In this document: in pieces, positions 10,058 through 63,107 of the stretch
Numbering within the stretch: position 1 is the stretch's first letter
Layout: the number at the start of each line of letters is the position of its first letter
NCBI RefSeq assembly: GCF_032714615.1
Contig: NZ_JAWDKA010000003.1
Coordinates: forward strand, 1 to 64,000
DNA: 64,000 nt
Origin: Methanorbis furvi
Lineage (GTDB): Archaea > Halobacteriota > Methanomicrobia > Methanomicrobiales > Methanocorpusculaceae
Direction of reading: 5' to 3'
Program-made: the position numbers and the translations under genes
The notes under the pieces: model-generated
Seen by the model: only the letters and a program-made list of their open reading frames with translations
Databases searched by the model: none
What the model was told of the DNA's origin: nothing

Positions 10058-10300
10058 AAACGCGAATAGCACGAATCGCATGTCTTTGGCCTGCTCACCG
10101 CTTCGCGGAATAGCGCGAATAAAAAATCGCCAAAGGCGATTTTTAGAATTTTACTAAAATTATTTATTTTCAAACAAACCAATTCGTCCAGAGAAGTACA
10201 TACAATTTTTTGAAAAATCGCCATTGACGATTTTTTATTCGCGCTATTCCGCGAAGCGGTGAGCAGGCCAAAGGCATGCGATTCGCGCTATTCGCGTTTT
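10058..10300. repeat. Family A inverted repeat element between uvrB and purH
   Basis: Left part 10058-10144 runs aaacgcgaatagcacgaatcgca, then a cctgctcaccgcttcgcgg module, then the palindrome aatcgccaaaggcgatt. About 70 nt of AT-rich body follow. The right part 10213-10300 is the mirror: aatcgccattgacgatt, tattcgcgctattccgcg, aagcggtgagcaggcc, ggcatgcgattcgcg. The right arm ends 8 nt before the uvrB stop codon. Confidence 0.82.
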
Positions 10301-10308
10301 AAAAATAA

Positions 10309-12243
10309 TCACAACCCGTTCCGCAGCTCCTTAACCCTGTCGCGAAGTGCGATCGCCTTCTCAAAGTCAAGACCAGCGGCGGCTGCCTTCATCTCAGCCT
10401 CAAGCTCGATGATGAGATTTGGAATCTCCGACTTCGGCAGATGCTTCACATCCTTAATGTCAACCTCCTTCTCGCGGACCGGTTTCTTGATCGTCTTTGG
10501 CACAATATCATGCTCGGTGTTGAACAAAATCTGCATCTCACGTCTGCGGGCGGTTTCTGACATCGCAACACGCATCGACTCGGTCATGTTGTCGGCATAC
10601 AAAACCACCCGTGACTCAGCATTGCGTGCCGCACGGCCGATGATCTGAATCAGACTCCGCGAATCACGCAGGAACCCCTCCTTATCAGCATCAAGAATTC
10701 CGATAAACCCGACCTCAGGAATATCAAGACCCTCACGAAGCAGATTGATACCCACCAGCACATCAAACAAACCAAGCCGCAGCTGGCGGATAAGCTCGGT
10801 CCGCTCAAGCGCCTGAATCTCCGAGTGAAGATATCTCGTCTTAATCCCCTGCTGCGCAAGATACTCGGTCAGCTCCTCGGCAAGCTTCTTCGTCAGCGTC
10901 GTAACAAGCGCACGGTCGCCTCTCGCGATCACCGCCTGAATTTCTCTGATGATATCATCAGTCTGCCCCTTAATGGGCCGCACCTCAACAACAGGATCCA
11001 CCAGACCCGTCGGCCTGATGATCTGCTCGACCACATCGCCCGAGTGGGACAACTCATACTCGCCCGGCGTTGCCGAGACAAAGATCACCTGACGCATATA
11101 CTTCTCAAACTCATCAAACTTGAGAGGGCGGTTGTCAAATGCGCTCGGCAGCCGGAACCCGTACTCAACCAGCGACATTTTTCTTGAGTGATCACCGTTG
11201 TACATCCCCCGAACCTGCGGGAGCGACTGGTGACTCTCATCGATCACCAGCAAAAAATCATCAGGGAAGTAATCAAGCAGACAGAACGGTTTCTCGCCTG
11301 CGGCTCGTCCATCGAAGTGGCGGGAGTAGTTCTCGATACCTTTGCAGGAGCCGGTCTCTTCAATCATCTCAAGATCATACTGCGTCCTCTGACGCAGACG
11401 GTGGGCCGAGAGATCGTCGAGTTTTCCCTCTCCGAGAACTTCGTCAAGTTCAGATCGAATGGATGCAAGACTTCGCTGCCGTTCAGACTCGGGCGTGACG
11501 AAGTGGCGCGCCGGATAGACATAAAAGTACTCGAGCCGTTCTTTTTCCTTGCCGGTGTTTTTGTCCACCTCAGAGATTCGTTCGATCTCATCACCAAACA
11601 GTTCGATTCTGATGATGTCGTTGAAGTAACCGGGGATGATATCGATCGTGTCCCCTTTGACGCGGAATCGTCCGGGCATCAGTTCAAGATCATTTCTCTC
11701 GAACAAAATGCTGATGAGTTTTTCGAGAATTTCGGTCCTGCCGATTTTTTGACCGGTGCGGAGTTCAAAACCGAGATTTTTGAAGTTCTCAGGGTTACCC
11801 AGACCATAGATGCAGGAGACCGAAGCCACTATTATAGTATCTCTGTGGGAGAGTAAAGACGCGGTCGCCGCAAGCCGCATCATCTCGATTTTGGGATTGA
11901 TTTGTGCATCCTTTTCGATGTACTGATCTTTTTTGGCGATGTAGGACTCGGGCTGGTAGTAGTCATAGTAGGAGATGAAGTACTCGACATGATTGTTCGG
12001 GAAAAATTCCTTGAACTCATTGTAAAGTTGTGCGGCAAGGGTTTTGTTGTGGGCAAGCACGAGCGTTGGTCTCTGGACGTTTGCGATAACATTTGCAATG
12101 GTGAAGGTTTTTCCTGACCCCGTCACGCCAAGCAGGGTCTGATACTGTTCGCCGTCTAAAATTCTGTCGGTGAGTTCGGCGATTGCTTCCGGCTGCGAGC
12201 CGCGGGGAGCGAACGAGGAGGTGATCTCAAACATGCCTGCCAT
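10309..12243 (-). CDS. uvrB: Excinuclease ABC subunit B
   Basis: A 644-residue DNA-repair helicase-like subunit that loads onto damaged DNA with UvrA and hands over to UvrC. Walker A is GVTGSGKT (about 39-46), followed by the beta-hairpin region YYDYYQPESYI. Walker B-like DESHQS, helicase motif FVSATPGEYE and motif VI IQIIGRAARN are present. The C-terminal UVR motif (about 605-640, ELEAEMKAAAAGLDFEKA) for UvrC contact is intact. The start could also be the ATG nine bases in (MFEITS). Bacterial-type UvrABC is patchy in archaea and mostly seen in mesophilic methanogens and halophiles. No uvrA or uvrC lies in the window. It diverges from the coiled-coil gene at 12349 over a shared promoter region. 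Confidence 0.95.
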   Translation of the reverse strand: MAGMFEITSSFAPRGSQPEAIAELTDRILDGEQYQTLLGVTGSGKTFTIANVIANVQRPTLVLAHNKTLAAQLYNEFKEFFPNNHVEYFISYYDYYQPESYIAKKDQYIEKDAQINPKIEMMRLAATASLLSHRDTIIVASVSCIYGLGNPENFKNLGFELRTGQKIGRTEILEKLISILFERNDLELMPGRFRVKGDTIDIIPGYFNDIIRIELFGDEIERISEVDKNTGKEKERLEYFYVYPARHFVTPESERQRSLASIRSELDEVLGEGKLDDLSAHRLRQRTQYDLEMIEETGSCKGIENYSRHFDGRAAGEKPFCLLDYFPDDFLLVIDESHQSLPQVRGMYNGDHSRKMSLVEYGFRLPSAFDNRPLKFDEFEKYMRQVIFVSATPGEYELSHSGDVVEQIIRPTGLVDPVVEVRPIKGQTDDIIREIQAVIARGDRALVTTLTKKLAEELTEYLAQQGIKTRYLHSEIQALERTELIRQLRLGLFDVLVGINLLREGLDIPEVGFIGILDADKEGFLRDSRSLIQIIGRAARNAESRVVLYADNMTESMRVAMSETARRREMQILFNTEHDIVPKTIKKPVREKEVDIKDVKHLPKSEIPNLIIELEAEMKAAAAGLDFEKAIALRDRVKELRNGL

Positions 12244-12317
12244 TTGTAGTAGTAATCTTGGTGTGAGGTACTATTAGTATGTGGGAATGCGGCATCAGGG
12301 GTCGCTATCTTCATATC

Positions 12318-12323
12318 TATATA
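12318..12323 (+). promoter_or_regulatory. TATA box of the 60-residue protein gene
   Basis: TATATA in catatctatatac lies about 28 nt before the ATG at 12349, as for a leaderless archaeal gene. On the other strand, a TATA-like catactaatag near 12270-12280 probably serves uvrB. Confidence 0.5.
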
Positions 12324-12348
12324 CTATTCAGGCGAACACCTCAATCAT

Positions 12349-12531
12349 ATGACACAGGAACTTGATAATGATGCCATTCTCCATGAACTCAAGCGGCTGG
12401 AAGGGATGATCCTCGTTCTTGAGAAGGAGAATATGGAGCTGCGCGAACGGGTGTCTGATCTTGAGCTCCAGACCGGGCAGCTGACCGAACGCCTGCTTCG
12501 AAGCGGCGGCTGTTCATCCTGCGGTATATGA
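12349..12531 (+). CDS. Small coiled-coil protein with Cys-rich tail
   Basis: A 60-residue protein. Residues 8-52 form a leucine-zipper-like heptad pattern (ILHELKRLEGMILVLEKEN, then LRERVSDLELQTGQLTERLL), and the tail GGCSSCGI has a CxxC pair that could bind metal or form a disulfide. It has a good TATA box and diverges from uvrB. The regular heptads, correct promoter spacing and clean stop argue it is real. A dimer or adaptor role is inference; no family is recognised. Confidence 0.65.
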   Translation: MTQELDNDAILHELKRLEGMILVLEKENMELRERVSDLELQTGQLTERLLRSGGCSSCGI

Positions 12532-12555
12532 TCTTTGTGAAACGCAAAGAAACTC

Positions 12556-12907
12556 GAAACGCGAATAGCACGAAGAACGCGAATAAAAAATCGCCAATGG
12601 CGATTTTTGAAAAAAAAATTACCAATATTTTTCTGAGAGCATAGATTGATCTGAAAATAAGTTATTTAGCAACCTCTTAAAAATCGCCAATGGCGATTTT
12701 TGAAAAAAAATTACCAATATTTTTCTGAGAGCATAGATTAATCTGAAAATAAGTTATTTAGCAACCTCTTAAAAATCGCCATTGGCGATTTTTTTTATTC
12801 GCGCTATTCCGCGAAGCGGTGAGCAGGCCGAAACGACTCCTGAAAGGAGGAGTTAAACACGACGAAACGGCGTGTGGAAGGCATGCGATTCGCGTTCTTC
12901 GCGTTTT
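12556..12907. repeat. Family A element with a 92-93 bp tandem duplication
   Basis: The outer left arm cgaaacgcgaatagcacg leads to three copies of the palindrome aatcgccaatggcgatt (tcgcc at 12591, 12684 and 12776). The roughly 75-nt body between the palindromes (ttaccaatatttttctgag... to ...agcaacctctta) is present twice and nearly identical. The outer right arm tattcgcgctattccgcg, agcggtgagcaggcc and ggcatgcgattcgcg follows, with an inserted 40-nt piece (gactcctgaaaggaggagtt and cacgacgaaacggcgtgtgg). It ends at the stop codon of the protease gene. Confidence 0.85.
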
Positions 12908-23548: not shown

Positions 23549-23842
23549 ATTCCATAAATGTTGGGACTTGAAATATAAAAAGAGTGGGCGGGGATCATAT
23601 ACACAAAATCATTTCTGCTTCGCAGCTCCGCCCACGGAACACACTGAACACACGGAAATTTCACGGAAAAAACATCACGGAGCAGACGTGAACAACACGG
23701 AAATAGATTTATTTTAATTAGGATAGGAGTTACGCGGTGTGATGTCAAGGAAAACTTATCTGTTTTTTTCTGAAAAATGTTGACTGGATTAGTGGTGGAT
23801 GGGTATGATGAGAAAAAACAACCGCAGATTCACGCAGATTCC

Positions 23843-23936
23843 AAATTTGCCAATCGCTGTTATCTTGCGTTCGGTCGGGACTCCGGCTAATCGCCTCCGT
23901 CCTTTTCGACCTCACTGGATAACAGCTGGCAAATTT
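23843..23936 (+). repeat. Family C 94-nt hairpin, copy C1-left
   Basis: Stem order: aaatttgcca/tggcaaattt (10 bp), bulge atc, gctgttatc/gataacagc (9 bp), internal loop, ggtcg/cgacc, ggac/gtcc, symmetric tcc/tcc loop, ggc/gcc, apical loop taatc. Pairing partners lie at 23843-23852 with 23927-23936, and 23856-23864 with 23918-23926. Confidence 0.85.
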
Positions 23937-24076
23937 TATCGGTTTTTTGTTGGAGTGGTAAATGCGGCTCTGTTTGGAAAAAAATCAATTACATATTCGT
24001 ATAGATGGCGTTTTCTGAAAAATGTGAGGGGAGAGGATGAGATAAATTATACTCATCACTCAACAAAAAACCGAAG

Positions 24077-24170
24077 AAATTTGCCAGCTGTTATCCAGTG
24101 AGGTCGAAAAGGACGGAGGCGATTAGCCGGAGTCCCGACCGAACGCAAGATAACAGCGATTGGCAAATTT
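24077..24170 (-). repeat. Family C 94-nt hairpin, copy C1-right
   Basis: Reverse-complement partner of C1-left with the same stems (gctgttatc/gataacagc, ggtcg/cgacc) and the same 3-nt bulge. Flanks match as well: caaccgcagattcacgcag on the left mirrors ctgcgtgaatctgcggttg here. Confidence 0.85.
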
Positions 24171-24511
24171 GGAATCTGCGTGAATCTGCGGTTGGTTTTT
24201 TCAAGTAAAACCCACTTACCACTCACCAGCCTACTTTTTTCCAGAAAAAAAGGAACTGAGATCTTTTTGCAATATCATATCGCGTAACTCCTATTTCTGT
24301 TGTTGTGCCATGAAAATATTTCGTCGCGATTTTTCAGAAAAATTCCCAAAACGAAACCAACGAAACATTTTGTGAGATCACAACAATTCATTTCCGTGTT
24401 GTTCACGTCTGCTCCGTGATGTTTTCTGTGAAAATTTCCGTGCGTTCCGATTTTCCGTGGGCGGAGCCGACGAAGCGGCAAACACGACGAAGCGAAAAAA
24501 AGTGAAAACGA

Positions 24512-27840: not shown

Positions 27841-27858
27841 AAATACTTTTTTTGTTTG

Positions 27859-28172
27859 AAGTAACCACGGAATGCACCGAACACACGGAGCTTCACTGAA
27901 TGCACGGAGAACGCCTGCGGCGCCGGAATGCACGGAAAGATTTCCGAGACAATTTATTCTCTTTTACTCCCTCAAAATATGAAAAATATATTCCGTGCAT
28001 TCCGGCGCCGCAGGCGTTCTCCGTGCATTTCTGCGAAGCAGTGAGCAGGCCGAAGGCATGTGATTTTCATTTTTCCGTGAAGTTCTGTGTGCTCTGTGCA
28101 TTCCGTGGTTACTCCAAGCGCGGCCAAAGACAGAAAATCTCAAATAATGAAACTCATCACCGCGTAAGTCCG
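27859..28172. repeat. Family D inverted repeat with a family E arm
   Basis: Left gtaaccacggaatgcac, right gcattccgtggttactcc (to 28115). Inner perfect arms at 27901-27938 and 27990-28027 share tgcacggagaacgcctgcgg and cgccggaatgcacgga. The module gcagtgagcaggccgaaggc sits in the right arm (28034-28060). A degenerate family E arm (caccgcgtaagtcc) is at 28152-28168. Confidence 0.85.
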
Positions 28173-28211
28173 ATTTTAAAAACGAACAGAAAATCAGATC
28201 AATAAAAAAAA

Positions 28212-62236: not shown

Positions 62237-63107
62237 AAAATGAGTTTCGCCATGTGAAATTGCATAAAGAAGAGGTTATTTTTGTACGTGATTACTTCAA
62301 AGAGGGCTTCCGCGATGTGAGCTTCATTGTTTGCGATTTATCTATCCTTTGCTTCGTTTGGAGTAACCACGGAAAACACAGACCAGACGGAATACCACGG
62401 AAAAAACACGGAGAACGCCTGCGACGCCAGAAAACACGGAAAGCCTAAGAGTATGAGTATGGGTAGTGGATCATCGTTTTGAAATGCCAATTTCCTTAGG
62501 GTTTCCCGCGAAACTGCTGTACTCTCACAAAAAGATTTAGTGAATTTTTTTCTGAAATATCGTGATGAAATATTTTCATGTGGTAATATATACTCCCGCA
62601 GTTATTTGGAAAAAAATCAATTGGACGATGAGAATAAAACACGAATTACACGAATCGCACGCCGCTTCGCGGCCTGCTTGGCTCGCCTACCGGCTCGCCG
62701 ATATTTGAAATGTATAACATATTTTCTCCTCGCTAATCGCTCGTCGATCAAATACAGTTTTTCGTTGCATCTTATTAGCTCCGACACCCTGACGAGCAAT
62801 TAGCGAGGAAGGGAGGAGGAAAGAGGTTCAAAATTATGTCGTGGGCGAGCCGGTAGGCGAGCACAGCATGCCGAAGGCATGCGATTCGTGTAATTCGTGT
62901 TCTCTACTTCAGCGACACTCTGAAAATATTTCTGCGACAATTTTTTTTTGAAAAATTTCCAAGACGAAACTTACTAAATCTTTTTGTGGCATCACATTTT
63001 TCCGTGGTATTCCGTGTGGTCTGTGTTTTCCGTGGTTACTCCAAATAAAACCAAATAAAGATAATTTCTTTTCCCTGTGCTATTTCACACCGCATAACTC
63101 CTCACAA
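62237..63107. repeat. Nested inverted-repeat locus (families E, D, F and A-like)
   Basis: Layers from outside: E (gagtttcgccatgtgaaatt at 62243, tatttcacaccgcataactc at 63083); D (ggagtaaccacggaaaacac at 62360, gtgttttccgtggttactcc at 63024); F (aaaaagatttagtgaatttt at 62529, acgaaacttactaaatcttt at 62964); an acgaat layer (acacgaattacacgaatcgc at 62639, gcgattcgtgtaattcgtgt at 62881); cgagccggtaggcgagc arms; and a core pair ctcgctaatcgctcgtc / gacgagcaattagcgag. No credible gene. Confidence 0.87.

What the first reader, a model, noticed from the sequence alone, without database searches (positions are those of the whole stretch)
23625..24466. Three-layer nested inverted repeat between acyl-CoA synthetase and valS genes
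Families B, E and C are arranged concentrically, so the whole 840-bp spacer is symmetrical about its centre. Each layer also occurs on its own elsewhere in the window. This suggests repeated insertion of palindromic elements into the centre of earlier ones, or a composite unit with a function in DNA structure.
Basis: seen in the sequence. Interest (0 to 1): 0.68.

Follow-up and report, generated by a model that had tools for sequence, protein, structure and literature searches.

The report
Nested miniature transposons in a methanogen
The long symmetrical stretch between the two genes is one small, gene-less jumping element that landed inside the loop of another, older one, shown by a close relative that has only the older one and by further relatives that have neither; it is a clear case of 'Russian-doll' mobile DNA rather than a new kind of structure.

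Summary
The symmetry is real: the 860-nt spacer insert folds into one long stem (z = -34). It consists of two nested miniature inverted-repeat elements (MITEs), not three. (1) Outer element 'O' (arms 23617-23708 / 24384-24476): about 145 copies in this Methanocorpusculum genome, about 60 in the nearest relative G019, almost none elsewhere in the genus; 8-9 bp target duplications. (2) Inner element 'T' (23724-24293): ends TAGGAGTTACGCGGTG, 6-bp target duplications (z = 9.1 over 56 copies), common in about ten of 25 genus genomes. A fragment of a third repeat ('D', about 90 bp) lies between O and T on one side only. Comparing the same valS/acyl-CoA synthetase gap settles the order: more distant relatives have neither element; G019 has O plus D but no T; our genome has all. 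A reciprocal case (T inside an O loop in G019, empty here) shows a perfect 6-bp duplication. The only T-ended element with a transposase is a frameshifted 1103-bp IS701-like relic. T lies in O loops more often than expected (5 of 28 versus 0.95, P = 0.002). Nested elements are known in haloarchaea: a new member of a known kind.

The parts
23617..23708 (+). left arm of outer MITE 'O' (GCTCCGCCCACGGAA...CATCACGGAGCAGACGTGAACAACACGGAA)
   Evidence: 84% identical to reverse complement of the right arm; core CACGGAGCAGACGTGAACA occurs 145+/146- in the genome, reversed-pattern control 0
24384..24476 (-). right arm of outer MITE 'O'
23709..23723 (+). left remnant of the O loop (AT-rich)
   Evidence: empty O elements have a 30-45 nt AT-rich loop here
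24294..24383 (+). right part of the O loop, containing fragment 'D' (CATGAAAATATTTCGTCGCGA...CAAAATGTTTCGTTGG), an older asymmetric insert
   Evidence: same sequence, reverse orientation, fills the loop of a T-free O element at L064:1080-1188; also present in G019 at the orthologous site
23724..24293 (+). inner MITE 'T', 570 bp, inserted in the O loop
   Evidence: intact free-standing copy C1:289969-290540 (572 bp, TSD TCTGAA/TCTGAA), 89% identical; absent at the orthologous site in G019
23724..23739 (+). left terminal inverted repeat of T, TAGGAGTTACGCGGTG
   Evidence: exact match
24278..24293 (-). right terminal inverted repeat of T, TAGGAGTTACGCGATA
   Evidence: 2 mismatches to TAGGAGTTACGCGGTG
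   Evidence: pairs with 24201-24277, about 71% over the outer arm
24201..24277 (-). outer subterminal arm of T, right
   Evidence: 97% complementary to 24057-24200; internal stem CTGTTATC/GATAACAG or TCATTATC/GATAATGA among copies
24057..24200 (-). inner arm of T, right
23958..24056 (+). central spacer of T
   Evidence: recognised at 70-91% identity in several other T copies
23718..23723 (+). sequence where the left target duplication of T should be (TTAGGA); does not match the right side TTTCTG (24294-24299)
   Evidence: right side matches the G019 empty site ...TTTTTTTCTGTTGG

Best explanation
The spacer carries two nested non-autonomous DNA transposons (MITEs). O, a palindromic element with 8-9 bp target duplications, inserted between valS and the acyl-CoA synthetase gene, upstream of the conserved TATA-like box, in the common ancestor of this species and G019. 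A third repeat, D, is in its loop in both species. Later, in this species only, T landed in the AT-rich O loop. T is a palindromic element with ends TAGGAGTTACGCGGTG and 6-bp duplications, moved in trans by a DDE transposase of the IS701-like kind, of which this genome keeps one broken copy with the same ends. The concentric look is a by-product of one palindrome sitting in the short loop of another. Shown: order of events, element boundaries, target duplications, shared ends with the transposase relic. Inferred: that this transposase moved T, and that O was moved by some other, possibly IS5-like, transposase. Function for the cell: none indicated; both layers are best read as selfish passengers in a tolerated gap.
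For: Orthologous spacers: 58-179 bp without either element in M. petauri (L084), L085-L088, L094 and 69-184 bp in L200, L202-L204, L207; L098 has a small gene there but no repeat. G019 has O and D but not T. Reciprocal case: O with a 45-nt loop at C1:171620 here, the same O in G019 with T inserted and the duplication AAATAA on both sides. T target duplication is 6 bp: mean identity 0.66 against 0.49 control, z = 9.1, 14 of 56 exact, other lengths weaker. O empty sites in G019 with flanking duplications such as CCGACTCA/CCATCTCA, AATAAAACA/AATAAAACA, CAAAAAAAGT. IS701-like transposase relic at C4:185483-186585 bounded by TAGGACTTACGCGGTG and TAGGAGTTACGCGGTG. T without coding capacity in another species. 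No gene-orientation preference for O.
Against: The window's own T copy has no matching 6-bp duplication (TTAGGA versus TTTCTG). Its left O arm resembles other O copies more than the G019 ortholog (ortholog rank 145 of 211), so the left side was altered afterwards, perhaps by gene conversion. No intact transposase with T ends was found in 25 genus genomes (listings of TIR places were cut, so this is not exhaustive), and none with clear O ends. Canonical IS701 elements make 4-bp duplications (PMC2266710), not 6.
Confidence: 0.92

Rival explanations
1. O hairpin loops are a preferred landing site for other elements (through AT-rich target sequence or through loops exposed when the hairpin extrudes), so nesting is directed rather than accidental.
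For: In 781 kb, 5 of 28 T elements lie in O loops against 0.95 expected for intergenic DNA, P = 0.002. 32 of 70 O elements have loops expanded to 65 nt or more by several unrelated inserts, against the 30-45 nt empty loop.
Against: In G019 only 1 of 33 T elements lies in an O loop against 0.36 expected, P = 0.30. The loops are AT-rich, like T target sites, so sequence preference alone may explain it. Some loop types may be inherited O subfamilies rather than new insertions. Survival in already tolerated sites gives the same pattern.
Confidence: 0.2
2. The layers are one composite element (O with T inside) that multiplies as a unit.
For: Several O elements contain T (C1:189316, C1:192405, C1:280450, C2:172306, C3:23676).
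Against: The T inserts are of different subtypes and sit at different loop positions; T occurs mostly without O, O mostly without T; orthologs show O without T in both directions; T is common in species with no O.
Confidence: 0.04
3. The spacer palindrome is a functional unit of the cell, for example a terminator, REP/BIME-like nucleoid site or structured RNA between valS and the acyl-CoA synthetase gene.
For: Very stable fold; location between a gene end and a promoter; compensatory changes inside the hairpin of the T inner arm.
Against: Absent from the same spacer in many relatives; O copies show no bias among convergent, tandem and divergent gaps (P about 0.6); only sub-threshold Rfam matches to microRNA families, which long hairpins tend to give; target duplications mark both layers as transposons.
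Confidence: 0.05

Closest known systems
MGE conglomerates of haloarchaea (Haloquadratum walsbyi; PMC3119063)
   Same: Short transposase-free elements inserted in one another, 192 such events listed, with targeting preferences; MITEs moving although their transposase is broken.
   Different: There the affected elements are mostly IS605-type elements and PATEs; here both partners are long near-perfect palindromes, so nesting yields a concentric inverted repeat.
Prokaryotic MITEs in general (review PMC10969869; nested 'Russian doll' elements in the de novo pipeline of PMC3852290)
   Same: Short, non-coding, terminal inverted repeats, target duplications, many intergenic copies, moved in trans.
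   Different: Unusually long arms (about 230 nt on each side of T) and high copy number of O (about 145 in 1.85 Mb). Methanocorpusculum is not mentioned in PMC3852290.
IS701 family / IS4 superfamily (PMC2266710; NCBIfam NF049921)
   Same: The relic bounded by T ends matches NF049921 (IS701_2) at E 1e-62 and 9e-9 over its two frames.
   Different: T duplications are 6 bp, whereas nearly all IS701 elements in PMC2266710 make 4 bp; the relic is frameshifted and scores below the model's cut-off.
REP/BIME palindromes
   Same: Many intergenic palindromic copies.
   Different: O has terminal repeats and 8-9 bp target duplications at empty sites; no gene-end bias.

Membership tests
MITE (both O and T) | terminal inverted repeats | tested here: met
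   T: TAGGAGTTACGCGGTG, 107 hits against 10 in the control. O: paired arms and ends of the form GGCTTTGCCCATAAATTCG, though the O ends are degenerate.
MITE (both O and T) | target site duplications of fixed length | tested here: met
   T 6 bp, z 9.1. O 8-9 bp from a handful of empty sites in G019, less precise.
MITE (both O and T) | no transposase gene | tested here: met
   no transposase ORF in T even in the 827-829 bp copies (L259 has only short overlapping frames); O unit under 300 bp when empty.
MITE (both O and T) | multi-copy, with empty orthologous sites in relatives | tested here: met
MITE (both O and T) | partner transposon with the same ends | tested here: inconclusive
   T: met by a broken 1103-bp element. 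O: only a weak lead, an IS5-like element in G023 with an end 16/19 identical.
IS701 family (for the element that moves T) | transposase of the family | tested here: met
   NF049921 E 1.1e-62 on the main frame, below the curated cut-off, the gene being broken
IS701 family (for the element that moves T) | 4-bp target duplication (PMC2266710) | tested here: not met
   T copies give 6 bp; 4 bp has z 2.1 only. Called IS701-like, not filed as a member.
IS630, IS1 and IS1595 families | transposase present in the genome | tested here: not met
   no PF13358 or PF03400 match in 25 genus genomes; PF12762 only in G016
REP/BIME | no target duplication; preference for gene ends | tested here: not met
   target duplications; no bias. 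The defining features are from general knowledge.

The most novel reading that the evidence does not exclude
Hairpin loops of the abundant O element act as landing pads: the IS701-like transposase and others choose DNA at the tip of extruded hairpins, so nested palindromes are built by directed, repeated central insertion across the genome.
Probability: 0.15. Interest if true: 0.6.

Novelty: new member of a known kind. Interest (0 to 1): 0.36.

Why it matters
It gives an ortholog-supported sequence of events for a nested palindrome in a methanogen genus where I found no published MITE description in the library searched, and links one abundant MITE family to a decaying IS701-like source. About 46% of sampled O elements carry something in their loop, so the genome offers a testable case of whether hairpin loops attract insertions.

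Tried and rejected
Rfam search: only sub-threshold microRNA matches typical of long hairpins. Initial idea that T has TA duplications and belongs with IS630: rejected by the 6-bp duplication and absence of IS630 transposases. IS1595 and IS1 as sources of O: no transposases in this species. Arm-to-arm gene conversion keeping palindromes perfect: weak for O (within-element identity 0.726 versus 0.716 permuted, p 0.04; rare variants shared 27 versus 11.8 expected), none for T inner arms (p 0.20), so not claimed. Intact IS5-like transposase at C9 (L283) has no O or T ends.

Full report
OBSERVATION. The 860-nt stretch folds as one stem, z = -34 against shuffles. The window belongs to a Methanocorpusculum genome (closest named valS relatives M. 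petauri and Candidatus M. faecipullorum), contig C3 of a 1.85-Mb assembly.

WHAT THE LAYERS ARE. Searching the genome with the spacer gave 147 matches. Placing the blocks on 37 loci shows two independent palindromic families. Empty O elements have a loop of 30-45 nt, usually 32. It occurs complete and alone, e.g. C1:289969-290540.

ORDER OF EVENTS. Relatives with the same gene order have spacers of 58-184 bp free of both elements (L098 carries a small gene there but no repeat). The nearest O-rich relative, G019, has in this spacer an O element with D in its loop and no T; its valS-side O core was later lost by a deletion between two GGAAATTTT stretches (the deletion mechanism is inferred from sequence). 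So O came first, D was in the loop before the split from G019, and T came last. The mirror case is at C1:171620: O with a short loop here, and in G019 the same O with a 344-bp T in the loop flanked by AAATAA on both sides. Other O sites are empty in G019, giving 8-9 bp duplications, for example CCGACTCA/CCATCTCA, AATAAAACA on both sides, CAAAAAAAGT on both sides (lengths beyond 9 are read as chance extension).

HOW THE ELEMENTS MOVE. Over 56 T copies from four species the flanking 6-mers match far above shuffled pairs (0.66 versus 0.49, z 9.1, 14 exact); 5 bp gives a weaker echo (z 6.1), and 2-4 and 7-11 bp give little. Two TIRs in this genome, C4:185483 and C4:186570, bound a 1103-bp element with a transposase in two frames; both pieces match NCBIfam NF049921, IS701-like. 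It is the only such copy here, and G019 keeps only a fragment. This is the likely source of T, now broken. PMC2266710 reports 4-bp duplications for IS701, so I call the source IS701-like rather than a member. For O no source was found; an IS5-like element in G023 with a similar end is a weak lead. O is confined to this species and G019 (291 and 123 half-sites, at most 4 in any other genome at this stringency), whereas T is abundant in several species without O.

IS NESTING MORE THAN CHANCE? In 781 kb of this genome 5 of 28 T elements lie in O loops, expected 0.95, P = 0.002; in G019 1 of 33, expected 0.36, not significant. 32 of 70 O loops are expanded, by several unrelated sequences; two of the largest (C1:183260, C1:334898) may be mispaired arms. 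A preference for O loops is possible, but AT-rich target sequence or survival in harmless sites explains it as well.

FUNCTION. The insert lies upstream of the TATA-like box that is conserved between this genome and its relatives, so the acyl-CoA synthetase core promoter is intact; an effect on expression was not testable here. O elements show no preference for convergent, tandem or divergent gaps.

LOOSE ENDS. The window's T lacks a matching duplication: the right side TTTCTG fits the G019 empty site, the left side TTAGGA does not. The left O arm is closer to other O copies than to the G019 ortholog. Conversion from another O copy after the T insertion would account for both, but this is inference.

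KNOWN CONTEXT. Elements nested in elements are frequent in haloarchaea (192 events in Haloquadratum, PMC3119063) and 'Russian doll' elements are handled by MITE pipelines (PMC3852290); the 2024 MITE review lists few archaea (PMC10969869). No paper in the library described these families in Methanocorpusculum. The finding is thus real, explained, and a new example of a known kind.

Noticed in passing
C1:189316-190024 (L037:930-1820) and C1:15965-16086: A GC-rich 35-40 nt unit (CGCATGCCTTCGGCCTGCT..CCGCTTCGCGG) is inserted at the same point in both arms of these O elements, at C1:15965 with private variants shared by both arms; elsewhere it is in one arm only. Suggests occasional copying between arms.
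   Followed up: partly
23813-23957 and other T copies: Each T inner arm is itself a hairpin whose stem shows compensated changes (CTGTTATC/GATAACAG versus TCATTATC/GATAATGA), the two types usually occupying opposite arms; the window copy has the same type in both.
   Followed up: partly
C2:172306-172758 and G019:C2:185391-185930: A T subtype holds a further palindrome (CCACGGAACACACTGAACACACGG...) that resembles the outer part of O, giving O around T around an O-like repeat.
   Followed up: no
window 27843-28194 and 62338-63103: More palindromic intergenic repeats with GAGTAACCACGGAA ends and T-like termini (28158, 63088); they trigger false microRNA matches in Rfam at 27896-28033.
   Followed up: no
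window 10085-12832: A separate repeat family (10085-10272, 12556-12832) including a 116-nt stretch repeated at 97% identity.
   Followed up: no
C4:185483-186585: Single broken IS701-like element with T ends, the probable source of T; no intact copy was found in the 25 genus genomes searched.
   Followed up: yes
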